A stretch of 64,000 nt of DNA, taken from contig NZ_JANKZF010000009.1 in the NCBI RefSeq assembly GCF_027568515.1, positions 186,001-250,000 on the forward strand, written 5' to 3'. Both the position numbers and the translations under genes were made by a program. The notes below the pieces were generated by a model that saw nothing but the letters and a program-made list of their open reading frames with translations, was not told the DNA's origin and searched no databases. Below are positions 23,478 through 38,458 of the stretch, piece by piece. Numbering within the stretch: the stretch's first letter is position 1; the number at the start of each line of letters is the position of its first letter. The DNA comes from Arthrobacter sp. HY1533. Lineage in GTDB: Bacteria; Actinomycetota; Actinomycetes; Actinomycetales; Micrococcaceae.

Positions 23478-23965
23478 TTTGATCGGTATTCCTTTGAGGT
23501 CTTGACAAGCTCGACCACCGATTCCTTCGAGCTCTGGCGAGGCTCGACTGCCAGCCGGCGGTGTGCAAGAAAGTAGATGCCAGCGCCGACTGCAGCGCCG
23601 AGTGTATTGGCAACGACATCCAGCACCGACGGGACCCTAGCCGAGAGAAACAGGGCCTGGCTCAGTTCGATGATGCACGAGGCCAGGAAACCGATGCCCA
23701 CACTCAGCCAAACGCTCTTCAGCCGCACCGAGGCAATGACGCCCATGGGCACAAACAGAAGGATGTTGGAGGAGAATTCAATTTGTGCATAGCCAACGAA
23801 TTTTGGCATGCCGTGGTGATGCAGCCACGAAATAGTCTGATCAAGGAATCCGGCCGCCGGTTTGTCCACCGGGGTGGGCCAAAAGACTATGAGTGCAAGT
23901 GCCACCAAGTAGGCAGCCATCAGCCCAACTGCAAGGCGGTGGATGGTCTTTTGGGAAAGTGTCAC
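23474..23965 (-). CDS. VanZ-family membrane protein (second copy)
   Basis: 163 residues from a GTG start 9 nt after the Hpt-like gene stop. Four hydrophobic segments, WPTPVDKPAAG, EFSSNILLFVPMGVI and ELSQALFLSARVPSVLDVVANTLGA identify the VanZ-like domain. It resembles the protein at 599-1051. The last residues (VEPRQSSKESVVELVKTSKEYRSK region) are encoded by a dispersed repeat (23499-23550) and do not belong to the family core. Function unknown. Confidence 0.87.
   Translation of the reverse strand: MTLSQKTIHRLAVGLMAAYLVALALIVFWPTPVDKPAAGFLDQTISWLHHHGMPKFVGYAQIEFSSNILLFVPMGVIASVRLKSVWLSVGIGFLASCIIELSQALFLSARVPSVLDVVANTLGAAVGAGIYFLAHRRLAVEPRQSSKESVVELVKTSKEYRSK
23499..23550. repeat. Dispersed CTCGACCACCG repeat inside the VanZ gene end
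   Basis: GGTCTTGACAAGCTCGACC at 23499 continues as ACCG and is followed by a related inverted segment (CGAGGCTCGACTGCC). The same core occurs twice in mfd (44843 and 45815). It is read through in frame and gives the VVELVKTS peptide at the protein's C-terminus. Confidence 0.6.
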
Positions 23966-23974
23966 ATGGAAACG

Positions 23975-24343
23975 TTACGCCACGTTGACGTAGCTTGCCG
24001 TCAACTGGCCTGCGGTTTGGTTTCCGCACTTGCGCAGCGCCGTCAGTTTCTTGTTGGCTGCAGAGTTACAACCGGATTCAAGGTCCCGGATGAGATCGCT
24101 GGTCAGCTTGCCCAGGCGGGCAGCGCCGACCATCATGCTGGAGCTGCGGAGACTTAGCGCTGCGTCCAGGGCGTCGTCTTTGTCTCCCGAGGCTACGGCT
24201 TCAAACAGGCGAACAAAGCGCCCAGGCCACATGTCAACATAGCGGCAGACAAAACTGCGACACAACGCATACTCGCCGTCGAGGGATTCCTCCAGTGAGT
24301 GCAGGGTCTCGGTGCAGACGAGTGGCAATGCGGTGACTGGCAT
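23975..24343 (-). CDS. Hpt-like helical protein lacking the phospho-histidine
   Basis: 122 residues from ATG at 24343 with AAGGAG six nt upstream, which decides the start. The region DAALSLRSSSMMVGAARLGKLTSDL (about residues 60-84) follows the histidine-phosphotransfer pattern AHxLKxSSxxxGAxxL, but Leu63 occupies the histidine position and Arg66 the lysine. The rest is helical. It is first in an operon with VanZ and a tyrosine phosphatase, and next to three kinases. It may be a non-catalytic Hpt relative that binds a receiver domain; this is inference. Confidence 0.6.
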   Translation of the reverse strand: MPVTALPLVCTETLHSLEESLDGEYALCRSFVCRYVDMWPGRFVRLFEAVASGDKDDALDAALSLRSSSMMVGAARLGKLTSDLIRDLESGCNSAANKKLTALRKCGNQTAGQLTASYVNVA

Positions 24344-24599: not shown

Positions 24600-24670
24600 C
24601 TTGTGCATTTCTTGTGCAAATATTCCGGATTCTCGATGCTGTTTCTTGAGGTGCCTGCGGCATTGTTGAT
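24600..24670 (+). promoter_or_regulatory. Orphan copy of the surface-operon regulatory region
   Basis: By hand alignment 53 of 71 bases match 26711-26781 without a gap, including an identical GTTTCTTGAG and CATTGTTG. It begins with a direct repeat of TTGTGC at 24601 and 24612, spaced 11 bp. In the other copy it precedes the first alternate-signal-peptide gene; here only a hairpin follows. Confidence 0.55.
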
Positions 24671-24760
24671 GCCGCCGGAAGGCAAGCGAGGCGGGGCGGA
24701 ATGCCCCCGAATGCAGGTGGTGTGTTGGTTCCCCCGCCAACACACCACCCCTGCATGGGG
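24665..24760 (+). ncRNA. Candidate small RNA from the orphan promoter
   Basis: If transcription starts after CATTGTTG as it would in the paralogous region, a transcript of about 80-95 nt would end at the hairpin 24711-24756. No open frame is evident. It could instead be the scar of a deleted gene. Nothing in the sequence proves transcription. Confidence 0.25.
24711..24756. terminator. Hairpin terminator between kinase gene and orphan promoter
   Basis: Arms 24711-24728 and 24737-24756 pair over 18 bp with a two-base bulge and an 8-nt loop (TTCCCCCG). It lies 45 bp past the kinase stop (minus strand) and also ends any plus-strand transcript from 24670. No T-tract follows. Confidence 0.6.
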
Positions 24761-24800
24761 TGCGCGGAGTCTGCATGCGGTGCCTGAATACCTGGCGTGA

Positions 24801-26525
24801 TTATGGGGTGGAGTCCAGCACAGACTCAGGCATGTCATCGCGGCCGGCCGGCCTGTTGTCGGTGGACAAACATCCGGGCAGAACGAATCCGATGGTGGTT
24901 CCCACGCCGGGCTCGCTGTTGAGGCTAATGGTGCCTCCATGTTTGGCAACGATGGTTCGGGAAATCATGAGTCCCAGCCCGATTCCCGGAATGGACCTGG
25001 CCATGGCGGACTTGGCCCGGAAGAACTTGGTAAAGGCCTCGGCCTGTTCCTCGGAGTCCATGCCCATCCCCGTGTCTTGGACCTGGCAGATCAGGTCCTC
25101 GCCTCGGGCCCAGGCCCGCACAGTGATGGTCCCGCCGTCGGGGGAGTACTTGACAGCGTTGGAGACAAAATTGTCCAGGACCTGGCCTATGCGCCTGGCG
25201 TCAACAAGGGCCATCAAGGAGCCCGCTACCTCGCTTGCCATGCGAAGGTTGTTCATTTCGGCGGCGGGGGCGGCGGAGGCCATGCTGTCCGCGACCAGGG
25301 AGGAAAAATTTGTCCGGCTCAGCTGCAAGGTTAGGGAGTCGGTGGTCAATAGATCCGAAACCAGCGCACTGAGCCGGTCTACATTGCGCGAGGCGATGGT
25401 CAGAAAGCCTTGGATTTCAGCCTGCGTCAGGTCAGGCTCCTCGAGAACCATGTCCAGATAGCCCTGGATGGAGGTAAGAGGGGTGCGAAACTCGTGCGAA
25501 ACGTTAGCCACAAAGTCATTCTTGGCGTCCAGCGCCGCCATCATCTCGGTGATGTCATGAAAGGCAATCACAGCGCCGTCAAAGCCACCGTTGTCATCCA
25601 AGATGGGTCGCGCTGCCGTGGACACGGCCCGGGCTTTAGCTCCGGCACCCACCCACACCATGTAGTTGGTGAAGGCCTGTCCCAAAATGGCCCGGCGCAC
25701 TGGACGTTCATCCGCCTCCACGGAAGTGACGCCGTCGACGTTGAAGACCAGCAGCTCCCTTTCTTCCGGGTCTGCAATGTCCTCCGGAAGTGCGTGGACA
25801 TGCAGCGCCCTTTGCGTCGCATTCATGAGCATGTCGTTGCCGTGGGCGTCGACCACGACCAGACCCACGGCCACAGTGTCGACAATAGTTTCCAAAAGCC
25901 GTTCCCTTTGCTGGCTTGCGGCGAGCATAGACCGTAGTTCAACGTCCTTGGCCTCAAGCGCCTTGCGTTGCAAGTTGACGGTATTGGTCACCGCGACAAC
26001 AGTGCTGGCGTAAGCGAGAACCACCAGGGGGAAGAGCAGCGGCCTGGCTAATTGTTCGGCCGTGAAGCCGCTGGGCGAGGTCAGGATGGGGAACCAAACT
26101 ATGAGCAGCGCTGCGACCCCGCTGATCGCCACGGTGGTGCGCGGAGCAATGTGCGAGGAAGCAAGCCAGAAGACGGGGAAGAAGATCAGCAGGCCAACTG
26201 CAGTAAGGAACTGTTGGTTGCCACCCCGGAAGAGGCCAATGGCCACAAAGTCCAGATAGGGGATCACTAGAAAGGCGCCCCTTGGCATCCTTTCCCACGG
26301 GATGGCAATCGACGCGATCAACAACAGCGCATGCAAGGTCAGGGAAGCGATGAACAGCGGTTCCCCAAACGAGGTTGGATAGATCAGCAAGGCAATTGCC
26401 ACTGCGAACACCATGAGGAGCGATAACGGCAGCTGATTGAGGAACACCCGCCGGCGCAATGGATCGAGCCAGCCCAGCAATCGCGAAGCCTTCTGCTGGT
26501 TTCCAAGGGGCATGGGCACTTCCAT
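24801..26525 (-). CDS. PAS-containing membrane sensor histidine kinase (paralogue 1)
   Basis: 574 residues (start at 26525 or at the in-frame ATG 26513). About six membrane helices at residues 30-180 form an intramembrane-type sensor with little extracellular sequence. A PAS-like domain follows (about 205-330), ending GAVIAFHDITEM. Then come HisKA with His344 in NVSHEFRTPLTS, and HATPase: DNFVSNAVKYSPD (N box), DTGMGM (G1), FTKFFRA (F) and GIGLGL (G2). All catalytic motifs are intact. It is highly similar to the proteins at 30596 and 36755. No regulator gene adjoins it; the single OmpR-type regulator at 32527 is the likely partner. The divergent surface operon starts 306 bp away. Confidence 0.93.
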   Translation of the reverse strand: MEVPMPLGNQQKASRLLGWLDPLRRRVFLNQLPLSLLMVFAVAIALLIYPTSFGEPLFIASLTLHALLLIASIAIPWERMPRGAFLVIPYLDFVAIGLFRGGNQQFLTAVGLLIFFPVFWLASSHIAPRTTVAISGVAALLIVWFPILTSPSGFTAEQLARPLLFPLVVLAYASTVVAVTNTVNLQRKALEAKDVELRSMLAASQQRERLLETIVDTVAVGLVVVDAHGNDMLMNATQRALHVHALPEDIADPEERELLVFNVDGVTSVEADERPVRRAILGQAFTNYMVWVGAGAKARAVSTAARPILDDNGGFDGAVIAFHDITEMMAALDAKNDFVANVSHEFRTPLTSIQGYLDMVLEEPDLTQAEIQGFLTIASRNVDRLSALVSDLLTTDSLTLQLSRTNFSSLVADSMASAAPAAEMNNLRMASEVAGSLMALVDARRIGQVLDNFVSNAVKYSPDGGTITVRAWARGEDLICQVQDTGMGMDSEEQAEAFTKFFRAKSAMARSIPGIGLGLMISRTIVAKHGGTISLNSEPGVGTTIGFVLPGCLSTDNRPAGRDDMPESVLDSTP

Positions 26526-26663
26526 CCTTCGACGTCGCTACGCGGCTCCTACGCTTGTGCCCGGCGCAGCCTTGTGCTGGCAGACACACTATTGGTACCG
26601 ATAATCTCACACGCGGCAGTTTGTGGACTTTAGTGACTTGCCGTCGACTTTGCAGAGATCACC

Positions 26664-26781
26664 TTGAGCGTTTCTTGAGCCTCAGGATCAGTCTCAAGAC
26701 AGCTGCGAATCTTGAGTTTTTCTTGCTGAAATCTTCCGGGTTTTTGGGGCTGTTTCTTGAGTTGGACGCTGCATTGTTGTT
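26664..26781 (+). promoter_or_regulatory. 11-bp-spaced direct repeats before the surface operon
   Basis: TTGAG at 26664 and 26675 and TTG at 26712 and 26723 form two direct-repeat pairs with 11-bp start-to-start spacing, with context CTTGAGnnTTTCTTG. An inverted CTCAAG lies between them (26693-26698), and GTTTCTTGAG recurs at 26752. OmpR/PhoB-type regulators bind tandem half-sites of this spacing. The region lies between the divergent kinase and surface operons. Confidence 0.5.
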
Positions 26782-26831
26782 CTCACCAGCAGGACAGCCT
26801 GCCGAGAAGAACACGAACAAGGGGTCTCAAA

Positions 26832-27386
26832 ATGAACAAGATTGCTAAAGGCGCTATTGCAACCGGTGTTGGTATTGTCCTGCTGGCAGGTGGCGGCGGA
26901 ACCCTCGCCGTCTGGAACCAGACAGACATCGGCACTCAGGGCAAGATTTCTGCCGGTGATTTGAACTTGGTTGCGGGCACCGGAGTTTGGAAGAACGCCA
27001 AGAACGAGGACATCACTATCGGCAGCTACCGCGTTGTCCCGGGCGAAGTTCTGACCTACACCCAGCCGCTGACCGTGACTTTGGAAGGTGACCTGATGGT
27101 GGCCCACTTGACTCTGACGGGAGCCTCGCCGGTCAACGGATTTGTTCCGGCAGACGTCACCACTTCCACCACACTGACTGATGCTGCCGGTGTGACAGTC
27201 GAAGGCAACACACCCTTGGACAAGGACCACGACGGTGATTTTACCGCCACCACCACGTTCGCGTTCCGCCTCGGCACCGAAGGACGCAGCTCTGTCAACG
27301 CTACGTACGATTTCAAGGACATTGGCTACATGTTGGAGCAGCAGACCCCCAACGCAGACATCGTTGCTCCCCCGGTTGGCCCGTAG
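26832..27386 (+). CDS. TasA-like protein with alternate-type signal peptide (1)
   Basis: 184 residues from ATG with AAGGGG upstream. The N-terminus KGAIATGVGIVLLAGGGGTLAVWNQ is the alternate-type signal peptide handled by SipW-like peptidases. A single beta-rich domain with ISAGDLNLVAG and YRVVPGEVLTYTQPL follows, as in TasA/camelysin-type fibre proteins. No transmembrane or sorting signal is present at the C-terminus, so it should be released or polymerise. First gene of the operon; the peptidase is encoded two genes downstream. Confidence 0.85.
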   Translation: MNKIAKGAIATGVGIVLLAGGGGTLAVWNQTDIGTQGKISAGDLNLVAGTGVWKNAKNEDITIGSYRVVPGEVLTYTQPLTVTLEGDLMVAHLTLTGASPVNGFVPADVTTSTTLTDAAGVTVEGNTPLDKDHDGDFTATTTFAFRLGTEGRSSVNATYDFKDIGYMLEQQTPNADIVAPPVGP

Positions 27387-27461
27387 GCCTTAGTTTCGTA
27401 GACCCCGGCGGCGTGCCGGGTACCCAACCGGCGCGCCGCCACCCCTCAGACGGAAGCAGCC

Positions 27462-28055
27462 ATGAAGACCACCCGCACCCTGAAAGCAACCGGCCTTGTG
27501 CTGATTGCCGTGGTGCTGGGATTGCTCACCGTCCAAGGAAGCTACGCACTCTGGAACAAGGTCGCCACCTCCAATGCCGGAACCATCCAGGCCGCTGATT
27601 TCAACGTCACTCTCGCGAAGAACCTGACTGACAAGCCGATCAGTATGACTACGGATCAGGGGACTGCAGCGACGCTGCAGCTAACCACCAAACCCCTCGG
27701 AGTGGTCAAACCAGGGGACAGCGCGTACGCCGGCGTTCAAGTGGGCAACATGACAAACGCCAGCGCCGATTTCAAGATCCAGGTACTCCTAGGCGCCCCC
27801 ACCATCACAAACAACAACTCTCAATGGCCTCTGGCACAGTACTTGAGTATCAAGGCTGTAGAAGCACCGTCGCTGGCGGAGTGCGGCTCAGCGTTGTTTT
27901 CACCTTCGACACCCGCCTCACCGGCGCCGCTGGAAATTGCCAAGGGCGCTAACGGTGTGTTTTGCTTCCAAGTTTCCCTGGCTGCCACCATGCCGGCAAC
28001 GTTCAATGGTCAGGCAGCGTCAATTTCCGTTCCGATCACAGTCAACCAATTCTAG
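27462..28055 (+). CDS. TasA-like protein with alternate-type signal peptide (2)
   Basis: 197 residues, 75 bp after the previous gene. The N-terminal segment TGLVLIAVVLGLLTVQGSYALWNKVATSNAGTIQAADFNV again shows the xALWN motif and AGxIxAxDF block. The rest is a beta-rich domain ending SISVPITVNQF. Two cysteines (in AECGSAL and GVFCFQV) could form a disulfide. It is a probable secreted SipW substrate and perhaps a minor or anchoring subunit of the same surface fibre. Confidence 0.8.
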   Translation: MKTTRTLKATGLVLIAVVLGLLTVQGSYALWNKVATSNAGTIQAADFNVTLAKNLTDKPISMTTDQGTAATLQLTTKPLGVVKPGDSAYAGVQVGNMTNASADFKIQVLLGAPTITNNNSQWPLAQYLSIKAVEAPSLAECGSALFSPSTPASPAPLEIAKGANGVFCFQVSLAATMPATFNGQAASISVPITVNQF

Positions 28056-28066
28056 GAGCGTTCGCC

Positions 28067-28678
28067 ATGTCTATCTTCAGCCCCGTCTCCCGTGATGCAG
28101 CATCGCCGGAGGCTGACGTGGCACCCGAACCGACCTCGCACGGAGCCTGGCGTTCAATCGGCACTTGGGCCGCCTACGTAGCCCTTCTGTTGGCGGCGCT
28201 CACCGCATTGATCATGATTGTGGCCCCCATGGCCACGGGCTCACACACTTACACGGTGCTGACCAGTTCCATGGCCCCGAAGTACGCCCCTGGAACTTTC
28301 TTGGTGGTCAAGCCAACCCCGTTTGCCGAACTCCAAGTGGGGGACATCATCACCTACCAAATTGAGTCCGGAAAGCCCGGAGTGATCACACACCGCATTA
28401 CCGCCGTGGCAACCACCCAAGCCGGTGCGCGGGTCATGACCACCAAGGGCGACAACAATTCCCTTGAAGATGCCGCCCCGGTCCAAGAAGCACAGGTCCA
28501 GGGCAAGCTGCTGTACGCAATCCCGTATGTAGGCTTTGCCGCCCACGCCGTGGGTGAACAGCGGGGCAAGCTGCTGCCCATCGTCGCTGTTGGATTTATT
28601 GCTCTGGGCGCATTCAGCATGGTCAAGGGTGCCGTGGAGAAGAAGCGCGGCAAGAATTCGGATCGACACGGCGAATGA
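28067..28678 (+). CDS. sipW: SipW-like signal peptidase I (S26B)
   Basis: 203 residues from ATG with AGGAG upstream, 11 nt after the previous stop. A membrane helix (residues ~30-60) precedes the catalytic box VLTSSMAPKYAPGTFLVV with the nucleophilic Ser. GDIITYQ follows, then ITHRI with the His that replaces lysine in the ER/SipW-type (S26B) class, and TKGDNNSLEDAAPV. A second helix lies near the C-terminus. It processes the two alternate-type signal peptides encoded just upstream at the outer membrane face. Confidence 0.93.
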   Translation: MSIFSPVSRDAASPEADVAPEPTSHGAWRSIGTWAAYVALLLAALTALIMIVAPMATGSHTYTVLTSSMAPKYAPGTFLVVKPTPFAELQVGDIITYQIESGKPGVITHRITAVATTQAGARVMTTKGDNNSLEDAAPVQEAQVQGKLLYAIPYVGFAAHAVGEQRGKLLPIVAVGFIALGAFSMVKGAVEKKRGKNSDRHGE

Positions 28679-29556
28679 CCCACGAAGTCCAACCGTGCAG
28701 GAGATCAGGCTCTATACGGGTGGCCGCCACGGCAATCGTGGCAAGCATTGCCCTGGGAGCCTTGCTGGCAGGACCTGCCAGTGCAGAACCGAACAAGAAC
28801 GAACTGCTTCAGCTAAGCAGCGACGGTGTCAACTTCGCCACCGACGCAATACCAACCATGTTTAGGAGCACAAAAGGTTATGTTCCAGGAGAATCGCGCA
28901 GGGCGCTCATTTGGGTCCGCAACGCCAGCAAACATCCAGCACATCTTTCCGTCGCCGTTCGCAACACCGGGATGGCAACAAGCTCGGTCCTACCAAAACA
29001 CCTCTTCTTCAAGGCCCAGTCCCAAAATCGCAGCCCCGCAGCCACCTCTCTGCCCGCTTCCGGCACCTGCACCCCGCTCATCGATGATTGGACTCTGGCC
29101 GGAGGCGCGGTTCTGCCCCTGACAGTCGACCTAGGTCTCTTGGTGGATGCCCCCAACTCGACCCGAAAACAGTCTGCAGAATTTGCATTGACGTTCCTCA
29201 TGCAGGAGCAGGGCCCCGGAAAACTGGTTAATGCCTGTGCCGGGACCACTGATAGCCCGCCCGCCGGAGAAGGAGTTGCCTCCGTGGTGGTTGGTGGCGG
29301 TACATCCGTTACCACCAATGGCGGCGGGGCACTGAACAGCAATGGAGCCGTTGCTGGCGACGACGAGGCCACCGCCAACCCTAGTTTGGCCCCTGATCCC
29401 TCCGGTGCCGAACCCTTGCCGGAGGCCCGGCCGTTGCTTCCCCAACTGCAAAGTAATGTGGAAGCCACCAGCTACAACCCATGGGCGTGGATTGTCCTGG
29501 CCAGTGGGTGTGTGTACATGTTCGCCATTTCCCGGAAACGGAGCACGACCAGATGA
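28675..29556 (+). CDS. Membrane-anchored secreted protein of the SipW operon
   Basis: 293 residues; ATG overlaps the sipW stop by 4 nt. A signal peptide (AATAIVASIALGALLAGPASAE) precedes a beta-rich domain with PGESRRALIWVRNASKHPAHLSV, like the immunoglobulin-like proteins found beside actinobacterial SipW genes. A Gly/Asn/Ala-rich linker leads to a C-terminal helix (WAWIVLASGCVYMFAI) and basic tail. There is no LPxTG. Probably anchors or organises the fibre on the outside of the membrane; I do not recognise a named family. Confidence 0.7.
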   Translation: MTHEVQPCRRSGSIRVAATAIVASIALGALLAGPASAEPNKNELLQLSSDGVNFATDAIPTMFRSTKGYVPGESRRALIWVRNASKHPAHLSVAVRNTGMATSSVLPKHLFFKAQSQNRSPAATSLPASGTCTPLIDDWTLAGGAVLPLTVDLGLLVDAPNSTRKQSAEFALTFLMQEQGPGKLVNACAGTTDSPPAGEGVASVVVGGGTSVTTNGGGALNSNGAVAGDDEATANPSLAPDPSGAEPLPEARPLLPQLQSNVEATSYNPWAWIVLASGCVYMFAISRKRSTTR

Positions 29557-30584
29557 GTTCAGCAGGGCCACAGCATGCAGGGGGAAACCAAGGCAACGGC
29601 TCGCAGCCATCTGGCCGCGGGCTGCGTAGTTTGCCGGGGTTCACCGTGGCAGCCGTGGTCTTTGTTCTCATTGTTTTGTTGGGTGTTGGCGGCATAGCCA
29701 TCGCCAACTGGAACCAAAGCGCGACAGTTGCCATCGCCGTCACGGCGGGAGCCGCGGCACCCACAAGTCCGCCGCCTACGACCGCTCCGCCGACGACGAA
29801 TCCTCCTACGACCGCGCCTCCGACAGCCGGTTCCGGCATAATTAGCACTGTGTTCAGCATCGCTCCGAGGCCAGGAAAAGTTGTGGTCGACACGGTCACG
29901 TGCGAGCCCCACGCCTCAAACGGTAGGTTCAATATTTCGTGGCCCAAGGTATCGCCGGCGGCCGATAGCTATACGGTCTCGATAAAGTCTCAGACGTCAA
30001 AGACGGCATTTCAGTCCACCGTGGATGTCAGGCCCACAACGAACCCTTTGGTTTCGACAACCTTTGATATTGGCAACCAGCCTGAACAATTTGGGCTCTA
30101 CCTGCTTCGAATTCAAGGCATTAAGAGTGGTGCTGCCGGTGACCCGATCTACAGGACGTTAAACTACTCCGCAAAAGGGAAAGGGGCTTGTCAGTGGGGC
30201 GCCTCCGATGGGCTTCCTCCGTTGGGTGCTTTTTCCGTAGATGCGGGTCCGCAGAGACAAACAGCCAACGCGGATGCCAATCTCAACCCCAACGCAAACC
30301 GAGTCAATCTCGGCTTTGTGGGGGCGGCCGAAGCCACTGAATTTGTAGTCAGCGTTGAGTCACTCAGCTCAACGTCCAGTTACGGGGCCGAATACAAGGC
30401 AAACGCCGGTGGCTCCACGTTGATCTTCCCTCTTCGGACGATTCAGGGCTATGAACCTGCCGCATCGGCTGCATTCTACGGTCAGTACAAAGTAAGGATC
30501 ATACCGATGAACGGGCAGGTCGCAGGAGATCCAGTATACAAGACTGTCCAATACCAACAGTGGAGTACCGAGGTTTGGGACTGA
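29553..30584 (+). CDS. Membrane-anchored protein with Pro/Thr stalk and fibronectin-like domains
   Basis: 343 residues; ATG overlaps the previous stop by 4 nt. A cytosolic Gly/Ser-rich N-terminus, one membrane helix (TVAAVVFVLIVLLGVGGIAIANW) and a stalk PPTTAPPTTNPPTTAPP (about residues 70-92) lead to two similar beta-rich halves. Each contains a VSIKS/VSVES-type strand, a GLYLLRIQGI or YKVRIIPMNG strand and GDPIYRT or GDPVYKT, so it is an internal duplication. The pattern suggests fibronectin-III-like modules. It is the last gene of the operon and may be a receptor or scaffold. Confidence 0.65.
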   Translation: MSSAGPQHAGGNQGNGSQPSGRGLRSLPGFTVAAVVFVLIVLLGVGGIAIANWNQSATVAIAVTAGAAAPTSPPPTTAPPTTNPPTTAPPTAGSGIISTVFSIAPRPGKVVVDTVTCEPHASNGRFNISWPKVSPAADSYTVSIKSQTSKTAFQSTVDVRPTTNPLVSTTFDIGNQPEQFGLYLLRIQGIKSGAAGDPIYRTLNYSAKGKGACQWGASDGLPPLGAFSVDAGPQRQTANADANLNPNANRVNLGFVGAAEATEFVVSVESLSSTSSYGAEYKANAGGSTLIFPLRTIQGYEPAASAAFYGQYKVRIIPMNGQVAGDPVYKTVQYQQWSTEVWD

Positions 30585-30595
30585 GTCGATTGGTC

Positions 30596-32305
30596 CTAGG
30601 GCATGGAGGACAATTCCGGGTTGATGATGCACACCGGGATCGTGAAACTCATGGTGGTTCCCTGACCGGGCTGGCTTTGCATGGTCAGGAAACCTCCGTG
30701 CTTGTCAATGATGGTCTTGGAAATCATGAGCCCCAGACCAATACCGGGGATGCCGCGTTCCACCGCTGATCCAGCCCTGAAGAATTTCTGGAACACACCT
30801 GCCTGCTCGGCACTGCTCATGCCGAGTCCAGTGTCCGCGACTTCGCAGTTCAAATCAGTACCGCTGGCCCAGGCACGGACGGTGAGGGTTCCGCCGTCGG
30901 GCGAGTACTTGATGGCGTTGGAGACCAGGTTGTCCAGCACCTGGCTGATCCTTCCGGCGTCAATCCTTGCCGCAAGAGGTAGCTGGCAATCTGTCTCCAC
31001 TGCCACTTTGTTGCGTTCCGCTGCCGGCCTGGCAGATTCAACGGATTCGGAAACCAATAGGGCAAAGTCGGCCACGGATCGTTGCACGGTCATTGCGGTG
31101 GTGGTCAACAGGTCAGAAACCAGGCCGTTGAGCCGAACCGCATTGCGCTGGGCGATTTCCAGGTAGTTGGCGATCTCCGCTGGCGGGGCACCTGGCGTCT
31201 CGCGGGCCATGGCCAAGTAGGACTGGATGGCGGTCAGGGGAGTGCGGAACTCATGGGAAACATTGGCGACAAAGTCATCTTTCGCGCTCAAGGCATTGAC
31301 CATGTCTGTGACGTCGTGGAAGGCGATGACGGCGCCGTCGGACTCACCGCCCTCGCCCTGGATGGTGCGGGCAGTTGTTGACAGCGCCCTCGCGCGATCG
31401 CCGGTGCCAATCCAGATTTGGTAGTTGGTGAACGATTCTCCCAAGATGGCCCGGCGGACCGGCCGTGCGTCGGCTGGCAACGCCCCCTTGTTTGGCCCAA
31501 AGACCAGCAGTTCACCTTCGTGGGGATCGGCGATGTGGTCAGGGACTCCCAGGGCATGGATGGCTTCCTGGGTTGAGTTCATGAGGCGGTCGTTGCCGTC
31601 CGCATCCACCACCACAACGCCAACGCCGACCGTGTCCACGATGGTCTCCAGCAGGCGCTCACGTTGTTGGCTGTCCAACAGGTCTGCCTTGCGCCGCCTG
31701 TCTTGTGAGACTAGGGCTTGACGCTGCCTGTCCATGCTGGTGGTCAGCACCACCATCCCGATGGCGAATGCGAGCATCATGAAGGGAAACAGCAGCGGAC
31801 GCAACAATTGTTCTGTGGTCACAGGCCCGGGCTTGAGGATTTGAGGAATCCAAACAATCACCAGGCTAGCAAGGGTGCTTGAAATGACCGCCGTTTTGGG
31901 CGCGTAGCCGGATGAGCACAGCCAAAACACTGGGAACAGCACCAACGCGGTGCCAGATGACAAGACAGTGCTGCTGCCATCTCGGAAGAAGGCCACGGCC
32001 ACGAAGCCAAGGTAAGGGATAACCAAGAAAGAGCCGGGCGGCAGCCTGTCCCAGGGAATGGTCACAGTAGCTGCCAGCAAGGCAATGCTCATGACCAAGG
32101 CGGTGACCAGCGTTGCTTGGCCGAACAGCGTCGGATCCAGGAAGGCAATCAGGGCGGTGGCCAGGACCACGGTGAGCGTGAAGGGCAGCTGGGCCAGAAA
32201 CAGCCGTGTCCGCAGGGAACGTTCATAAAAGTAGCGTCGCAGGAGTTGGCCTGCGGAAGCGTCGCTGGAATTGGCAGGGGCGAAGGTCAAATTGGTGTCT
32301 GTCAC
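30596..32305 (-). CDS. PAS-containing membrane sensor histidine kinase (paralogue 2)
   Basis: 569 residues from GTG at 32305. Six helices (about 40-190), a PAS-like domain (215-335) and HisKA with His351 (ANVSHEFRTPLTA), then N box DNLVSNAIKYSPD, G1 DTGLGM, F box FQKFFRA and G2 GIGLGL. It converges with the surface operon (stop 11 nt from that operon's last stop) and is divergent from the response regulator at 32527, so it is the most natural cognate kinase. Shares the block RPVRRAILGxxFTNYxxWxG with the other two kinases. Confidence 0.94.
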   Translation of the reverse strand: MTDTNLTFAPANSSDASAGQLLRRYFYERSLRTRLFLAQLPFTLTVVLATALIAFLDPTLFGQATLVTALVMSIALLAATVTIPWDRLPPGSFLVIPYLGFVAVAFFRDGSSTVLSSGTALVLFPVFWLCSSGYAPKTAVISSTLASLVIVWIPQILKPGPVTTEQLLRPLLFPFMMLAFAIGMVVLTTSMDRQRQALVSQDRRRKADLLDSQQRERLLETIVDTVGVGVVVVDADGNDRLMNSTQEAIHALGVPDHIADPHEGELLVFGPNKGALPADARPVRRAILGESFTNYQIWIGTGDRARALSTTARTIQGEGGESDGAVIAFHDVTDMVNALSAKDDFVANVSHEFRTPLTAIQSYLAMARETPGAPPAEIANYLEIAQRNAVRLNGLVSDLLTTTAMTVQRSVADFALLVSESVESARPAAERNKVAVETDCQLPLAARIDAGRISQVLDNLVSNAIKYSPDGGTLTVRAWASGTDLNCEVADTGLGMSSAEQAGVFQKFFRAGSAVERGIPGIGLGLMISKTIIDKHGGFLTMQSQPGQGTTMSFTIPVCIINPELSSMP

Positions 32306-32526
32306 TGGTTCAATTCCGCCAAATCCCCAAATAAGTTGGTAATGATGGGCCGTGCATGTGGCCCGGGCCCCGGTGATTGGCCGACTCTCTCACGCCGCAG
32401 GGAGTGAAACATCCGCGGGCACCGCTATTGATGATGCCATACTGTAAGTTGCAACTGGGTCCGGGGGCCCTGAAGTTCAGCAACAAGTATGGTTCTTATT
32501 GGTCTTGCAAGTGTAGTGGGGTAGAG

Positions 32527-33360
32527 ATGGACAATTCTCGTATAGCAGTCATCGTTGAAGACGACCAAGATATCCGTGAACTTATCAGCGTCATTCTCTG
32601 CCAAGCCGGTTTTGATGTTTACACCGCCAGCAACGGGGCTGATGGTGTTGAAGCCGTTCGGAAGCACAACCCCGCCATTGTCACCTTGGATCTTGGCCTG
32701 CCGGACATGGACGGTTTTGAGGTGGCCAGGCGAGTAAGGCTCTTCAGTGATGCCTACATCATCATGCTGACAGGGCGTGCTGATGAAATGGACACGCTGC
32801 TGGGCCTGGAAACCGGGGCCGATGACTACCTCACCAAGCCCTTCCGCCCCCGTGAGTTGCGGGCCAGGATCAGCGCCATGTTGCGCAGGCCGCGCCTTGG
32901 CGCGTCCACCTCCTCAGTTGATGCGGAAACTACCGGAGCAGCCACCGCACCAGCGGCTCCCGGCCAACCTGAAGCCGCTGCCACTGTATCCACGGGTTCC
33001 ACCGCTGCGGCTGTCGAATCCACGGGCCCCAGCATTGATGCGCCGCGGGCCATCAACGGCCTGGTTCTCAACGACGGAGACCGCACAGCGGAAGTGGACG
33101 GCACCGAGCTGGAGCTGACCCGGACCGAATTTGACCTGCTCCACGCGCTGGTGGACAGCGGCAAGCAGGTGCGCAGCAAGTCGGACCTGGTGCGCTGGCT
33201 GCGAGGCGAAGAATACGACGTGGGCACCTACATCAGCGAAGCCGACGAGCGCACCATCGAGGTGCACATGACCAACCTGCGCCGCAAGATGGGGGACAAC
33301 CCCCGCGATCCCCGCTGGATCAAGACCGTTCGCGGCGTTGGCTACCGGTTGGTCCACTAA
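32527..33360 (+). CDS. OmpR/PhoB-type response regulator
   Basis: 277 residues from ATG with a GGGG ribosome site; divergent from kinase 2 with 221 bp between. Receiver domain (1-120) has EDD at residues 11-13, Asp55 in IVTLDLGLPDMDG, and LTKPF with the conserved Lys. A long Ala/Thr-rich linker of about 55 residues leads to the winged-helix domain: LTRTEFDLLHALVDS, RTIEVHMTNLRRKMGD and TVRGVGYRLV. It is the only regulator beside three kinases and probably binds the 11-bp-spaced repeats at 26664-26781 (inference). Confidence 0.95.
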   Translation: MDNSRIAVIVEDDQDIRELISVILCQAGFDVYTASNGADGVEAVRKHNPAIVTLDLGLPDMDGFEVARRVRLFSDAYIIMLTGRADEMDTLLGLETGADDYLTKPFRPRELRARISAMLRRPRLGASTSSVDAETTGAATAPAAPGQPEAAATVSTGSTAAAVESTGPSIDAPRAINGLVLNDGDRTAEVDGTELELTRTEFDLLHALVDSGKQVRSKSDLVRWLRGEEYDVGTYISEADERTIEVHMTNLRRKMGDNPRDPRWIKTVRGVGYRLVH

Positions 33361-33475
33361 GGCCATCCATCCGTTCCTGACAGCAGGGCCCCAGCCAACA
33401 TGGATTTGGGGCGGGTTGATCCGTGCCAGCAGGCGGCCGAGCCGGGCTGGCTACGCGTGGAATTTGTAGTACAGC

Positions 33476-35311
33476 GTGTCGCTTTCGGCCACTTATGATC
33501 CAATCGGCTCAGGTGCCGCGGCTGCCGCCGCATCGGAGCCACTTACCGTTTCGGGTAAGCGCGCCGTGCGAAAAGATGAGTTGACCTACAATGCGTTGGA
33601 CCACGGAATCGTAGGCGACGGAACGATAGATGATGTCGCTGCCATCGAGGCGTTGGGTTCCCTTGTCTCAGCGGCAGGCGGGGGAACGATCTACTTTCCT
33701 CGCCGAACATACCGAGTCTCCCGATCCATTCGCTGCCGCAGCAATGTCCGTTACCGGGACGACAAGACTGTCATCTACAACAACACCACTTCAACTTCAC
33801 CCATTGACAAAGGGGCGTTCATCCCTGGGTATATTCACGGGGCCGGATTCTATGCACCCAACGGTGCTGGCAAGGTTTTTAGCAGCGTTGCGATATCTGA
33901 CGTTGCACTGGGCAGCACCACCATCACAGCAGCCTCAGTAGGCGGGCTCTCCGCCGTATCAGTGGGGGACTTCATTGCAGTCCGCAGCGTGGCGAACTAT
34001 GTGGCAAGCGCGGTCGAAGTCCCAAATCAGCTTTACTTCAGCAAGGTACTGTCAATCAGCGGGGACACTCTGACCCTTTCGGACGCCTCGCCCTATGCCA
34101 TTGCCGGCGCTACCGTTCACCCCCTGAAGGGCAACCCTGTGGATGGGCAAAACGCCGTAATGGAGATGATCGAGAACGTCGCCATTGAGGGCTTTGACAT
34201 CGACGCCATCTTCCCGGTCTGGGGCGGCGGTTGCTACGGATTCCGGATGTCAAATATCAGGCCACACAACCGAGAAAAGGTCTCCAGCCTCGTATCGCTC
34301 AACGCCATGTGCAGGTTTGAGATTACAGACTGCCAGGCGGACTGGTACTACACTTTTTGTGAACTTGCCCTTGGCTGTGCTGACGGGAGAGTGCACCGGA
34401 ACGCTGGCACCTTCCGCGTGGGGACAAGCATTTTCAACCCCATCAGCATCGTAGAGTCGTCGCACAACATCAAGGTCGAGGACAATACCCTCACAGTGCC
34501 GTCTGCCTTCACGGAAGCAACCAAAGTGTTTGCCAACCTTGGCCACTGCCAAGATGTCTGGATCCGAGACAACAAGTTACTTGCTCTCGGTTCAATGGAT
34601 GCCGTCTTCGGGGTGTCGAATGGTGCTGTTGCTGAACGGGGCGTATCTGGCCTTCGGGTGAACAATAACCAGATCACCACAGGGGCAGGGGTGAACCGCG
34701 TATTCAGCATCGGCGGAAACATTGGTGCATACGTCCCTAGACGATTTACAGTAAGGGATAACTTCCTCAGCGGCGTACTAAATCCGGCTGTCAATGAGTG
34801 GATGATGCTTCTGGCTGGTGAAGACTTCGTCGTTTCGGGCAACGTCGTTCCCGATGGAGCGGGGCAGCGCGTTGGACCCAGCCCGCGAGGTCGGTTTGAC
34901 GGTGGAGAGCCGACGACAGCGACCTCGGGGCATATGGTAACGGTCACGGCCATGGCAGGCAACGTCCTTCACTGCAACCTGACAAAGACCATAGGACGGA
35001 TTCTCTATCGGGGCTCTATCACCGCCGTTCGAGTCGAGGTGATTACCGCCTACAACGCAGGCACGAGCAACACGTTGGTGGTCGGACACTCGGCAGTTGA
35101 TAACGCCTACGCCACATCAATCAACGTGGGCTCAACGGGCGTCTTCTACATCTACCCTGGGCACGCAAGTGCGGGCACTGGAATGGGTAAGCGTCTGGCC
35201 ACCCAAGACAGGGATGTGCTGGCCACCTACACGCCGTCCGGCACGGCACCAAACCAGGGCCTCGCACTCGTCACTGTTTTCTACGAGCCGAACACACCGC
35301 CTTCGTCGTAG
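33476..35311 (+). CDS. Phage-tailspike-like right-handed beta-helix protein
   Basis: 611 residues from GTG at 33476; a stop codon at 33467 bounds the frame and no ribosome site is visible. After the short Ala-rich N-terminus, DHGIVGDGTIDDVAAIEALGSLVSAAGGGTIYFPRRTY matches the start of pectate-lyase/tailspike beta-helices. The Asn-rich middle (VEDNTL, WIRDNKL, VNNNQI, VRDNFL, VSGNVV) shows the parallel beta-helix coils, and a small C-terminal beta domain follows. No signal peptide. It could be a capsule depolymerase derived from a prophage. No other phage gene is adjacent. It may lack its original N-terminal head-binding part. Confidence 0.6.
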   Translation: MSLSATYDPIGSGAAAAAASEPLTVSGKRAVRKDELTYNALDHGIVGDGTIDDVAAIEALGSLVSAAGGGTIYFPRRTYRVSRSIRCRSNVRYRDDKTVIYNNTTSTSPIDKGAFIPGYIHGAGFYAPNGAGKVFSSVAISDVALGSTTITAASVGGLSAVSVGDFIAVRSVANYVASAVEVPNQLYFSKVLSISGDTLTLSDASPYAIAGATVHPLKGNPVDGQNAVMEMIENVAIEGFDIDAIFPVWGGGCYGFRMSNIRPHNREKVSSLVSLNAMCRFEITDCQADWYYTFCELALGCADGRVHRNAGTFRVGTSIFNPISIVESSHNIKVEDNTLTVPSAFTEATKVFANLGHCQDVWIRDNKLLALGSMDAVFGVSNGAVAERGVSGLRVNNNQITTGAGVNRVFSIGGNIGAYVPRRFTVRDNFLSGVLNPAVNEWMMLLAGEDFVVSGNVVPDGAGQRVGPSPRGRFDGGEPTTATSGHMVTVTAMAGNVLHCNLTKTIGRILYRGSITAVRVEVITAYNAGTSNTLVVGHSAVDNAYATSINVGSTGVFYIYPGHASAGTGMGKRLATQDRDVLATYTPSGTAPNQGLALVTVFYEPNTPPSS

Positions 35312-35314
35312 GTA

Positions 35315-36442
35315 TCAGCGGCGCAGGATGGCTTTCTTGATGGTACGGGCGGCATCCCATAGTGGGGCCGTCCGTACCATCCATGTAAGAGCAGCGGTTA
35401 GTTCTTTGTCTTCGATGCCGTGGGTTTTCATTGCTTCAAGATTTTGCTTGGCAAATATGGCCGATCCATGCTCGGGCCGGAAGGAGCGGAGGCGCTGTAT
35501 ATCAATTGCATCAGGAAGCGTGCGGCATCTTTCGAGGGAGCCCACTACCCGAAGATTAACCATGGTACGGATACATTTCTCACACTGACCACAGTTGAAG
35601 GCGCCACCCGGGTTCTCCCAGCAGATGCGCAAGTGATCCATGGCAGCATCGCTCTTAGAGATCCGCTCCACTTGCTCCGGGCGAGTGGCGGACTCTCCGT
35701 GGTGCTCAAAAGTAACCGACGAAGAGTTCCATAGAGAGTCAAGCTCTGGGTGGGAGCCCCAAGGGAATAGATCGCTCGTATGGTAGCTCGCCGGGATGAT
35801 TACACGTTCCAAGACGTCGCCTAGCAGCAACCCTACGGTGGCCAACGCTGCGCCATGGTAGTGAGTCCCCCAGTCCAGTAAGCCTTCAGACATGTGGCGA
35901 ATATTGGTCCGAACTTCAACGAGCTCCTTGCCAAGTGACTTGGCCGCGCCCCTGGCGCCATCCAAGGCTTTCTGCGACAACGCCTCATCATCTACGTCGA
36001 TATCGAACCCTGTTACGAAGATCAAATGCGTGATGTCCTCGGACCGCTCAATGGCGGAGTAGAACGAGTCCGCCCCGCCGCTGAAGAAACTTCCGACCCC
36101 GCGCTGCTGGAGGCGCTCTGGAACTGGATCGCTGACTGAGACGATTTCAATCGAGCGGAGGTTACTGTACCAGGAGTCAAGCAGACTCTGAACGCCGGCC
36201 GCATTCTCGAGTGCGATCGGGTCCTGGGGCCCAGCTAACCGGAGTTCCATGCCGTGTCTCATAGCCATAGGCAAGGTGGCTGGTAGCCACGCTCCGCTTC
36301 CGCCGTTCAGGGGGACGTTGGCCGAGACGTCAATCTGGATGGGGCCTTCGTCTAGTCCGTGAAGAATCGCAGAGGCCGACATTGAGTCGTCCGACGCCAG
36401 TGGTTCAGTAGTGAGTACACCTATCGTGCTGGCATTGGCCAT
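35315..36442 (-). CDS. PP-loop ATPase-like protein with QueC-type zinc motif
   Basis: 375 residues; ATG after GGGGGAT. SFFSGGADSFYSA (Ser121-Ser126) is the PP-loop of N-type ATP pyrophosphatases. Near residue 274 lies C-x9-C-x2-C-x2-C (Cys274, 284, 287, 290), the zinc-binding arrangement of QueC. The N-terminal ~110 residues are unlike QueC. No other deazapurine gene is nearby, so a role in queuosine or archaeosine synthesis is unlikely; ATP-dependent activation of another substrate in the surface locus is inference. Stops converge 3 bp from the tailspike-like gene. Family not named. Confidence 0.7.
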   Translation of the reverse strand: MANASTIGVLTTEPLASDDSMSASAILHGLDEGPIQIDVSANVPLNGGSGAWLPATLPMAMRHGMELRLAGPQDPIALENAAGVQSLLDSWYSNLRSIEIVSVSDPVPERLQQRGVGSFFSGGADSFYSAIERSEDITHLIFVTGFDIDVDDEALSQKALDGARGAAKSLGKELVEVRTNIRHMSEGLLDWGTHYHGAALATVGLLLGDVLERVIIPASYHTSDLFPWGSHPELDSLWNSSSVTFEHHGESATRPEQVERISKSDAAMDHLRICWENPGGAFNCGQCEKCIRTMVNLRVVGSLERCRTLPDAIDIQRLRSFRPEHGSAIFAKQNLEAMKTHGIEDKELTAALTWMVRTAPLWDAARTIKKAILRR

Positions 36443-36754
36443 GAAAATCCCCCAGAAAAGTGAGCAAGCAAAGTTATCTCAAGTCTAAAGCAGGCTAGGG
36501 TCACATAAGGCCGGTAAAGCATCGTCTGCGTCAAGGCTGTCGAAGCATGATCGCCGCAGTGCAAGCTGCGCGGGCCGCCGCTAGGATGTCAACATCTGCG
36601 GGCACAAACGCGACGGTGCAGCAAGGGCGGACTGTCTTGCTATGTTCCGCGGCTGGGCGCACTTGGCCATCATGTCGGGGGAAACTGAATCCGGTCTGGC
36701 CTTCTCAGACGCTTCTGACAGAAAGTACCAACGAAGTCGTGAGCCTTTTCCGCC
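36443..36754. other. Intergenic stretch between kinase 3 and PP-loop gene
   Basis: About 310 bp with no gene that I can support. It should contain the PP-loop gene's promoter. I saw no terminator-grade hairpin after the kinase stop. Confidence 0.4.
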
Positions 36755-38458
36755 TTAGTTCAGCACCAGCACTGACTCCGGCAGTTCGATCCGCATGGTG
36801 GTTCCCACATTGCGCTCGCTTTGCACTGTGATGGCGCCGCCGTGGTTGGCCACAATGGCCTTGGTGATCAGCAGCCCCAGGCCCAGCCCGGGGATGGAAC
36901 GCTCCAGGGCAGGGTCCGCCCGGAAGAATTTGGTGAACGCCTGCGCCTGCTCGGCGCTGCTCATCCCCATGCCGGTGTCCCGGACCTCCAGCACCACATC
37001 GGCACCGTCGGCCACGGCACTCACGGTGACCGTTCCGCCGTCGGGCGAGTACTTGATGGCATTGGAGATCAAGTTGTCCAGCGCCTGGCCAATTCTTCCC
37101 GCGTCCACCATGGCCCAGAGCTGGTCCGGGACATGCTCGGTCAACTCCACCCCGTTCCGCTCCGCCATGGGTCGCGCGGAGACAACACTCTCGTGGGCCA
37201 GTGTGGCAATGTCCGTCATGGCGGGGGTGACCTCCATTGAATCCGTGGTCAACAGGTCCGAGACCAGCCGGTTCAGGCGCAGCGCATTTCGCTGGGTGAT
37301 GGTCAGGAACTTGTTGATGTCCGCCGGCAGCCGGTCGGCATCATCGAGCACCATGCCCAGATACCCCAGGATGGAGGTCAGCGGTGTGCGGAACTCGTGG
37401 GAAACGTTGGCCACAAAGTCGTCCTTGGCGGCCAAGGCCGCCATCACCTCAGTGTTGTCGTGGAAGGCAATGACGGCCCCGGCGGAACTGCCATCCTCAT
37501 TGCGCATGGTGCGGGCCGTGGTGGAAATGGCCCGGCTGTTCTCACCCTGGCCAATCCACATCTGGTAGTTGGTGAACGATTCGCCCAGGATGGCGCGGCG
37601 GACGGGCCGCTCATCCGGAGGCAACGGGACCTTGCCATGGCCAAACAGCAGGAGGTCCTTCTCCTGCGGATCCGCCATGCCCGGCGGCAGGGCCTGGGCG
37701 CGGATGGTGTCCTGCGTGGCGTTCATGAGCTGGTCGTTGCCGCCCTCATCCACCACCACAATGCCCACGGCCACGGTGTCCAGGACGGTGGCAAGCATCT
37801 GCTCGCGCTGCTTGCTCAGTTCAAGGGCGGTTCTCAGCTCGGCATCCTTGGCTTGCAAGGCCTTGCGCTGGCTGTCCATGCTGGCCGTCATGATGACCAC
37901 CGTCATGGAGAATGCCATCATCATGAATGGAAAGACCAGCGGCTTGGCCAGCAGCTCCGGGGTGATTTTTGCCGGCCCCAGGAACAGCGGAACCCACACA
38001 ATCAACAAGGTGCCCAGCGTGCTGGAGACAATGGCCGTCTTCCGCGCGTACCCGGATGCGGAAAGCCAGAACACGGGGAACAACGCCAGCAGACCCACGG
38101 AGGTGATGTACTGCGCGCTGCCATCGCGGATGAATCCAACCGAAACCAGGTCCAGGTACGGAATGGCCAGGAACGCCCCGCGCGGCATCCGGTCCCAGGG
38201 GACGGCCACGCACAGGGCAAGAATGGCCGCCTGCATCCACAGCCCGGCGATGAAGTGCGGACCCGCCAGAATGACCGGGTAGTACGCCGCGGCCAGGCCC
38301 ACCGTCAAGAGCACGGTCAACGTCAGCGGCAGCTGCGTGAGCAGCACCCGCATCCGCAGGGTCCTTTTGTAGAAGTGGCGCTTGAGCAGGGTGTCTTGGG
38401 CTGGGTTGGTCAAGGGACTTCCGTAATGGGTCAGGGTCATGCGCCGGGACTGGCACAT
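36755..38458 (-). CDS. PAS-containing membrane sensor histidine kinase (paralogue 3)
   Basis: 567 residues from ATG at 38458 (or ATG at 38440). Six helices (about 45-195), PAS-like domain, HisKA with His354 in NVSHEFRTPLTS, N box DNLISNAIKYSPD, G1 DTGMGM, F box FTKFFRA, G2 GLGLGL (first Ile replaced by Leu). All catalytic residues are present. Closely similar to kinases 1 and 2, with the same RPVRRAILGESFTNYQMWIG block. No regulator adjoins it; the gene is downstream of nhaA on the same strand direction but has its own 77-bp gap. Ligand unknown. Confidence 0.93.
   Translation of the reverse strand: MCQSRRMTLTHYGSPLTNPAQDTLLKRHFYKRTLRMRVLLTQLPLTLTVLLTVGLAAAYYPVILAGPHFIAGLWMQAAILALCVAVPWDRMPRGAFLAIPYLDLVSVGFIRDGSAQYITSVGLLALFPVFWLSASGYARKTAIVSSTLGTLLIVWVPLFLGPAKITPELLAKPLVFPFMMMAFSMTVVIMTASMDSQRKALQAKDAELRTALELSKQREQMLATVLDTVAVGIVVVDEGGNDQLMNATQDTIRAQALPPGMADPQEKDLLLFGHGKVPLPPDERPVRRAILGESFTNYQMWIGQGENSRAISTTARTMRNEDGSSAGAVIAFHDNTEVMAALAAKDDFVANVSHEFRTPLTSILGYLGMVLDDADRLPADINKFLTITQRNALRLNRLVSDLLTTDSMEVTPAMTDIATLAHESVVSARPMAERNGVELTEHVPDQLWAMVDAGRIGQALDNLISNAIKYSPDGGTVTVSAVADGADVVLEVRDTGMGMSSAEQAQAFTKFFRADPALERSIPGLGLGLLITKAIVANHGGAITVQSERNVGTTMRIELPESVLVLN

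What the first reader, a model, noticed from the sequence alone, without database searches (positions are those of the whole stretch)
24600..38458. A SipW/TasA-like surface operon under three paralogous kinases and one regulator
Three closely similar membrane PAS/HisKA kinases (24801, 30596, 36755), all with intact catalytic motifs, sit around a five-gene SipW operon, with a single OmpR-type regulator. Each kinase keeps the same RPVRRAILG block in its PAS region, so they arose by local duplication and may feed different signals into one output. A second unit with a QueC-like enzyme and a tailspike-like protein lies between kinases 2 and 3. I know of no named system with this layout.
Basis: partly seen in the sequence, partly recalled or inferred. 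Interest (0 to 1): 0.85.

Follow-up and report, generated by a model that had tools for sequence, protein, structure and literature searches.

The report
SipW operon with histidine-less phosphotransfer partner
A soil-type bacterium controls a cell-surface protein operon with membrane sensors and one DNA-binding switch protein, and the locus also carries an overlooked small protein shaped like a phosphate-relay protein but missing the histidine that would carry the phosphate, a likely built-in brake or docking partner of the switch.

Summary
The layout is real: three membrane HisKA kinases (54-55% identical), a five-gene SipW operon and one OmpR-type regulator. The interpretation needs changes. 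The kinases are three old orthologous groups shared across the genus (support 100/99, 100/100, 99/99), not a local duplication, and a two-component-controlled sipW operon is already known (Clostridium perfringens bsaRS). (1) SipW-operon promoters carry CTTGAG-N5-CTTG direct repeats with an 11-bp period; all 17 strict sites in 623 kb of 36 related loci lie upstream of the SipW operon or of one small gene. (2) That gene (window 23975-24343) encodes an Hpt-fold protein whose phospho-accepting histidine is replaced, usually by leucine. Across 58 genomes, 23 of the 24 that carry it also carry the kinase. In 20 of 21 class-wide loci it lies tail-to-tail with a receiver-domain (mostly OmpR-like) gene, and it is fused to glycosyltransferases in three fetched loci. 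Best reading: the kinases feed one regulator, which drives the SipW operon and a pseudo-HPt that docks on the receiver, probably as feedback. Docking, its sign, and the use of this regulator by the first and third kinases are inferred; two relatives speak against the first kinase.

The parts
23975..24343 (-). pseudo-HPt (pHpt): 122-aa Hpt-fold protein, phospho-His position is Leu63
24600..24614 (+). CTTG-N7-CTTG direct repeat upstream of pHpt (one letter off CTTGAG)
24801..26525 (-). HK1: multi-TM PAS-HisKA-HATPase kinase
   Evidence: clade of 11 rows, 100/99
26663..26677 (+). CTTGAGCGTTTCTTG, 11-bp direct repeat in the SipW-operon promoter
26711..26736 (+). CTTGAGTTTTTCTTGCTGAAATCTTC, three 11-bp-spaced repeats in the SipW-operon promoter
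   Evidence: holds the only perfect match in the own genome to TCTTGAGNNNTTCTTG
26832..27386 (+). SubA: TIGR04089 alternate-signal exported protein
   Evidence: beta-rich AF2 model, pLDDT only 60.7
27462..28055 (+). SubB: SipW-dependent signal peptide protein (TIGR04088, borderline)
28061..28678 (+). SipW-type signal peptidase (TIGR02228)
28675..29556 (+). 293-aa protein with a signal-like N-terminus and a C-terminal hydrophobic segment
   Evidence: sequence; no Pfam or NCBIfam family
29553..30584 (+). 343-aa protein with a SipW-like N-terminal segment and a Pro/Thr linker
   Evidence: sequence; no family over cut-off
30596..32305 (-). HK2: kinase divergent from the regulator
   Evidence: clade of 9 rows, 100/100
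32430..32443 (+). GATGATGCCATACT, conserved block in the HK2/RR intergenic region, role unknown
32527..33360 (+). RR: OmpR/PhoB-type response regulator
33476..35311 (+). pectate-lyase-fold-type protein; no tblastn match (E<=1e-4) in the 36 relative loci scanned
   Evidence: PF12708 2e-7
35315..36442 (-). protein with PP-loop-like SGGADS motif; the QueC assignment has no profile support
36755..38458 (-). HK3: third kinase; orthologues occupy HK2's slot beside the regulator in five relatives
   Evidence: clade of 7 rows, 99/99

Best explanation
This is a surface-protein module of Arthrobacter-type bacteria. Membrane kinases (HK2 as cognate partner; HK1 and HK3 probably converging on it) phosphorylate one OmpR-type regulator. 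The regulator binds arrays of CTTGAG-N5 half-sites spaced 11 bp apart and turns on SubA-SubB-SipW-D-E, so that SipW processes and exports the surface proteins. The same kind of site lies upstream of a small pseudo-HPt gene. Its product keeps the HPt fold but cannot carry phosphate in the usual way because its histidine is replaced. I propose that it docks on the regulator's receiver domain as a true HPt would and so limits or times the response (feedback). Shown: layout, orthology, co-occurrence, predicted fold, missing histidine, conserved 11-bp repeats and their position. Inferred: that this regulator is the repeat-binding protein (about 0.85), that pHpt binds the receiver (about 0.65), that it inhibits (about 0.45), and that HK1 and HK3 act on this regulator (about 0.55-0.65 each).
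For: Co-occurrence in 58 genomes, at different cut-offs for each query: kinase with pHpt 23 both, 0 kinase only, 1 pHpt only, 34 neither; regulator with pHpt 22/1/2/33; within the genus 18 of 23 genomes match all three and 5 none (G007's 'regulator' match is receiver-only). CTTG-CTTG spacing on the coding strand of 16 SipW-operon promoters: 20 pairs at 11 bp, 0-3 at every other spacing from 5 to 26. Strict CTTGAGN5CTTG: 17 sites in 623,369 bp of 36 loci, about 1.2 expected by a uniform-base estimate, all 17 in a SubA-upstream or pHpt-upstream gap by the gene map. Looser sites: 14 of 16 main SipW operons, 0 of 7 other cassettes (5 second cassettes, 2 in genomes without the regulator; Fisher 1.5e-4); 8 of 8 pHpt genes beside HK1, 0 of 4 beside a regulator or receiver. 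G013 and G014 lack HK2 and there the regulator follows the SipW operon on the same strand. Histidine column: 59 of 64 distinct pHpt-profile hits lack His, 48 have Leu. Class-wide: of 21 H-less loci 20 have a receiver-domain gene tail-to-tail, 18 within 110 bp. The domain is fused to GT2 glycosyltransferases beside single-domain receivers.
Against: No binding or phosphotransfer was measured. In the window alone CTTGN7CTTG is not enriched (4 seen, 2.69 expected, 28 of 100 shuffles reach it); the case rests on position and conservation. In the own genome the 16-base pattern with up to one mismatch gives 6 hits against 3 for the reversed control. On the other strand the same word shows 11 pairs at 19 bp, which I read as the conserved leader and start codon. 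Two main operons (G004, G009) have no loose site. The promoters of the regulator, HK2 and HK3 have no CTTG pair at 11 bp. G015 and G007 link HK1 to a receiver-only protein. DHp specificity positions (chosen from memory) do not discriminate: HK1 and HK3 carry LTSGYMV, HK2 LTASYMA, and outgroup kinases mostly LTSGY. Promoter and pHpt sets were cut at 44% identity before counting, which dropped among others G005's partial operon, the G020 pHpt beside a receiver fragment and the other-genus pHpt genes. G001/G022 are near-duplicates and count twice in several tallies.
Confidence: 0.6

Rival explanations
1. Ordinary locus: HK2 and the regulator form one two-component system controlling the SipW operon; HK1 and HK3 belong to other circuits that happen to lie nearby, and pHpt is a decaying leftover of a phosphorelay.
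For: HK1 sits with a receiver-only protein in G015 and G007. HK2 has its own DHp residues, LTASY, in all 9 clade members. HK3 in the window is separated from the regulator by two genes. One of the 42 pHpt matches in relatives (in G005) has an in-frame stop.
Against: The other 41 of 42 pHpt matches are open and the pseudo-active-site region is among the most conserved (S64 55/57, L63 48/57, G73 56/57), which does not look like decay. HK1 and HK2 are retained together with one regulator match in several species. HK3 orthologues sit in HK2's slot in G004, G006, G009, G018 and G021.
Confidence: 0.22
2. pHpt acts on the kinases, not the regulator: it mimics a DHp/HPt helical bundle and blocks kinase-receiver docking, as plant AHP6 is thought to do.
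For: pHpt lies next to HK1 on the same strand in 8 loci including the window. AHP6 is described as competing with true HPts for the kinases (PMC7402358, passages).
Against: Class-wide, all 21 counted H-less loci have a receiver-domain gene in the 3-kb locus, whereas a kinase of this subfamily was seen in 5 of 21 (the 1.5-kb flanks limit this).
Confidence: 0.2
3. pHpt is a positive adaptor: docking of the receiver on pHpt stabilises the active regulator or, in fusions, lets a phosphorylated receiver switch a glycosyltransferase on.
For: GT2-pHpt fusions next to single-domain receivers; pHpt shares its type of upstream site with the output operon.
Against: No sign-specific evidence exists here.
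Confidence: 0.25
4. The 11-bp repeats bind another OmpR-family regulator and not the one in the locus.
For: The regulator's own promoter lacks the repeats; the first look for this regulator raised 64 candidate places in the genome, so other receiver proteins are present.
Against: Sites are absent from 7 of 7 second or regulator-less cassettes. Sites persist in G011, where the operon and regulator are about 0.5 Mb apart.
Confidence: 0.13

Closest known systems
Clostridium perfringens sipW-bsaABCRSD operon with BsaR/BsaS (PMC7395162, passages seen)
   Same: SipW-type peptidase plus exported matrix proteins; [quoted passage not shown] purified BsaR is said to bind specifically (the passage seen is cut before the target).
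   Different: One kinase inside the operon; no pseudo-HPt in the passages seen; another phylum. Here up to three kinase paralogues in divergent units, an OmpR-type regulator, 11-bp repeats and pHpt.
Bacillus subtilis tapA-sipW-tasA (recalled)
   Same: SipW-processed surface/matrix proteins, here too near a polysaccharide gene cluster (window 1-24 kb, by sequence).
Arabidopsis AHP6 pseudo-HPt (PMC7402358, passages seen)
   Same: HPt protein with the phospho-histidine replaced (Asn there); acts as a negative regulator.
   Different: Plant cytokinin relay with true HPts to compete with. Here a HisKA-OmpR system; residue is mostly Leu.
HptB (7c1i_A, Pseudomonas aeruginosa) and other HPt proteins
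   Different: HptB has H-x-x-K-G; the window pHpt has L-S-L-R-S in that place.

Membership tests
OmpR/PhoB response regulator | Receiver plus Trans_reg_C winged helix | tested here: met
   Response_reg 93.8 bits (cut-off 30.2), Trans_reg_C 75 (26.2); receiver acidic pocket, Thr and Lys visible
OmpR/PhoB response regulator | Binds direct repeats of about one helical turn (11 bp) (recalled) | tested here: inconclusive
   11-bp repeats are present upstream of SubA; binding was not tested
HisKA histidine kinase | HisKA and HATPase_c domains with catalytic boxes | tested here: met
Histidine phosphotransfer (HPt) protein | HPt helical-bundle fold | tested here: met
   Predicted model; Pfam Hpt matches 17 of 18 rows at E<=1, the window protein only at 0.015, under cut-off
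Histidine phosphotransfer (HPt) protein | Phospho-accepting histidine (HxxKG) | tested here: not met
   Leu63 in the window; 59 of 64 distinct hits lack His; alignment to 7c1i_A
SipW signal peptidase | TIGR02228 signal peptidase I | tested here: met
   90.8 bits, cut-off 51.85
SipW signal peptidase | Bacillus SipW equivalog NF046067 | tested here: not met
   77.5 bits, cut-off 190
TIGR04089 alternate-signal exported protein | Model score over cut-off | tested here: met
   128.9 bits, cut-off 60
TasA/CalY (Peptidase_M73, PF12389) | Model match in this genome | tested here: not met
   0 matches at E<=0.001 in the genome; B. subtilis control rings
TasA fibre fold | TasA-like jelly roll of SubA | tested here: inconclusive
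QueC | QueC or PP-loop profile match | tested here: not met
   0 families at E<=0.1 in Pfam and NCBIfam; no PP-loop enzyme

The most novel reading that the evidence does not exclude
Actinobacteria have an unnamed class of pseudo-HPt proteins that work as receiver-docking modules without phosphotransfer: stand-alone as dedicated partners of OmpR regulators, here placed under promoter sites shared with the regulator's output operon as a feedback element, and fused to glycosyltransferases as a direct receiver-controlled switch.
Probability: 0.5. Interest if true: 0.8.

Novelty: new variant of a known kind. Interest (0 to 1): 0.6.

Why it matters
Pseudo-HPt proteins are known from plants; the five paper searches made here (two of them with capped listings) showed no described bacterial family of this sort, and NCBIfam gave the window protein no name. 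A histidine-less HPt that keeps company with one regulator type, with mapped promoter sites, would show how two-component systems can be tuned by docking alone. It also gives a ready list of genes to test and links surface-protein secretion in Arthrobacter-type bacteria to defined sensors and candidate operator sites.

Tried and rejected
Local duplication: rejected by the tree. Specificity residues as proof of one output: not usable. TasA homology of SubA: left open, weak model. QueC: no profile support. Promoter k-mers first returned mainly the start codon and leader; the repeats became clear on alignment. Window-only enrichment of the repeat is not significant. pHpt as a true HPt with misaligned His: rejected, no His among the 22 most conserved columns shown. 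A second receiver for HK1 in the own genome: none at E<=1e-25 besides the regulator. In one search three of the seven control cassettes were first read from the wrong end and were redone; three further weak cassette matches there (L058, L080 twice) gave no site but their starts were not placed, so they are not counted. In the class survey at most 11 candidates per genome were scored, so 25 of 394 is a lower bound. Of 64 distinct hits five carry His (34-46 bits) and two Glu; some H-less hits score as low (37.8 and 43.5 bits in G042). The five His and two Glu rows were left out of the 57-row conservation count; the 21-locus count leaves out these, the window's own locus and L131 (Ser, no receiver nearby). 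L138 is divergent, not convergent. Literature: 'pseudo-HPt' (20 listed of 16,393), HPt lacking histidine (15 of 156), degenerate or HPt-like (6 of 6), HPt in Actinobacteria (7 of 7), HPt with glycosyltransferase (1 of 1): no bacterial family like this seen in these listings; most subscription papers are not held. Other passages read: Actinoplanes AsfR and Pseudomonas RcsC, not alike. SipW with Arthrobacter gave 2 papers and the family names 2, none on this locus by title or the abstract start shown.
Full report
What is there. The window lies in a genome G000, contig C63. The named records found with the small gene are Arthrobacter psychrochitiniphilus, A. cryoconiti, Arthrobacter sp. GMC3, H35-MC1 and E3, plus one filed as Sporosarcina beigongshangi (7 loci in 6 records), so I call it Arthrobacter-type. 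The kinases show six or seven hydrophobic segments in the first 240 residues in a simple Kyte-Doolittle scan, a PAS model over cut-off only in HK1, and HisKA and HATPase_c in all three. They are 54-55% identical.

The kinases are old. A 42-row tree (39 of the 41 kinase matches outside the window, leaving out one cut by a locus end and one not fetched) puts HK1 with ten relatives (100/99), HK2 with eight (100/100) and HK3 with six (99/99). HK1 stands directly before the SipW operon in G001, G003 and G022, and before it with nhaA and a second pHpt between in G005 and G019; G005's operon is only partly recognisable. HK2 lies between operon and regulator in G001, G003, G005, G012, G019, G020 and G022; HK3 takes HK2's place in G004, G006, G009, G018 and G021. 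G014 has HK1 and HK3 but no HK2. The window is the only genome in the tree with all three. The RP-x-R-[RK]-A stretch is found in 31 of 42 kinases, outgroups included, so it does not mark a local event.

Which regulator. At E<=1e-45 the window genome has one match. A search with a single-domain receiver from G015 again finds only this regulator in G000 at E<=1e-25. Two relatives speak against a simple 'all kinases, one regulator' rule: in G015 an HK1-type kinase sits beside a receiver-only protein while another kinase sits beside the OmpR regulator, and G007 has HK1 with only a receiver-only protein. I therefore hold HK2 to regulator as likely and HK1 and HK3 as probable.

Promoter repeats. Aligned SipW-operon promoters from 16 loci (those with SubA at 44% identity or more) show CTTGAG-N5-CTTG repeats. 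On the coding strand CTTG pairs occur 20 times at 11 bp and 0-3 times at any other distance from 5 to 26; on the other strand there are 11 pairs at 19 bp, which I take to be the conserved leader and start. Strict CTTGAGN5CTTG occurs 17 times in 623,369 bp of 36 loci, the window not included (about 1.2 expected by a uniform-base estimate); by the gene map all 17 lie upstream of SubA or in the gap upstream of pHpt. L047 and L066 (G001, G022) are near-identical and supply two each. With a looser pattern 14 of 16 main operons have a site (G004 and G009 do not); 0 of 7 other cassettes do, five of them second cassettes and two in genomes without the regulator (Fisher 1.5e-4). pHpt genes beside HK1 have a site in 8 of 8, those beside a regulator or receiver in 0 of 4. 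In the own genome the longer pattern with up to one mismatch gives 6 hits against 3 for the reversed control; three of the 6 are in this locus, including the only perfect one. In the window by itself the short pattern is not over-represented. Direct repeats of about 11 bp are what OmpR/PhoB-type regulators bind (recalled).

Linkage. In 58 genomes, kinase and pHpt are together in 23, kinase alone 0, pHpt alone 1, neither 34; within the genus 18 of 23 genomes match kinase, regulator and pHpt and 5 match none (cut-offs differ between queries, and G007's regulator match is receiver-only). The SipW substrate follows less tightly (17/6/11/24 with the kinase), so SipW was probably recruited by an existing signalling module. 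In 394 class genomes, 25 match at 1e-7 (a lower bound). Of the 30 loci returned, leaving out the window's own, 5 with His, 2 with Glu and 1 with Ser, 21 remain: all have a receiver-domain gene, 20 of them tail-to-tail and 18 within 110 bp; one is divergent. Six of the 21 neighbours were scanned with Pfam (L113, L117, L124, L128, L140, and L138 through its copy L091), plus L094 from outside the 21: all seven are receiver plus Trans_reg_C. The neighbours of the GT2 fusions are single-domain receivers (lengths; L066's by Pfam). In L066, L078 and L079 the same domain is the C-terminal part of a family 2 glycosyltransferase; the Hpt model itself is over cut-off only in L078.

Reading. HK2, and probably HK1 and HK3, act through one regulator on the SipW operon and on pHpt. 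pHpt cannot carry phosphate by the usual chemistry. Its fold, its gene partner and the GT2 fusions point to docking on receivers. Because its gene has the operon's type of site I favour feedback; the sign is not established.

What is known. The C. perfringens sipW operon contains and needs its own sensor and regulator (PMC7395162, passages), so a two-component-controlled SipW operon is not new. AHP6 is a plant pseudo-HPt that damps a relay (PMC7402358, passages). Caulobacter HmrB is a putative HPt without the HxxKG motif, but neither of its histidines could be replaced without loss of function (PMC11481889, passages). The searches listed under Tried and rejected showed no bacterial histidine-less HPt family tied to OmpR regulators.

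Noticed in passing
window 32430-32443: GATGATGCCATACT in the HK2/RR intergenic region is nearly identical in the 12 aligned HK2-type regulator promoters, also where HK2 is absent; role unknown.
   Followed up: partly
L066:4192-6081, L078:2931-4946, L079:4746-6992: GT2 glycosyltransferases with a C-terminal histidine-less Hpt domain, head-to-head (L066) or tail-to-tail (L078, L079) with a single-domain receiver and near a related kinase.
   Followed up: partly
window 41445-42289: 264-bp tandem repeat, 3.2 copies, 95% matches, inside a 988-aa protein with divergent InlB B-repeat domains.
   Followed up: no
window 22195-22797: Integrase-core (rve) open frame, probably of an insertion element, between the polysaccharide genes and the LMW-phosphatase/VanZ/pHpt genes.
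   Followed up: no
window 22875-23965: LMW tyrosine phosphatase and VanZ-like genes that keep company with HK1 or pHpt in several relatives.
   Followed up: no
L073:8762-9874: A related kinase sits beside a receiver fused to a SpoIIE phosphatase domain.
   Followed up: no
window 26800-26831: The leader CAAGGGGTCT just before SubA's start codon is conserved in most of the 16 loci (CAAGGGGTC in 14), more than a ribosome site seems to need.
   Followed up: no
L103: Record named Sporosarcina beigongshangi carries the Arthrobacter-type locus; probably a mislabelled genome.
   Followed up: no
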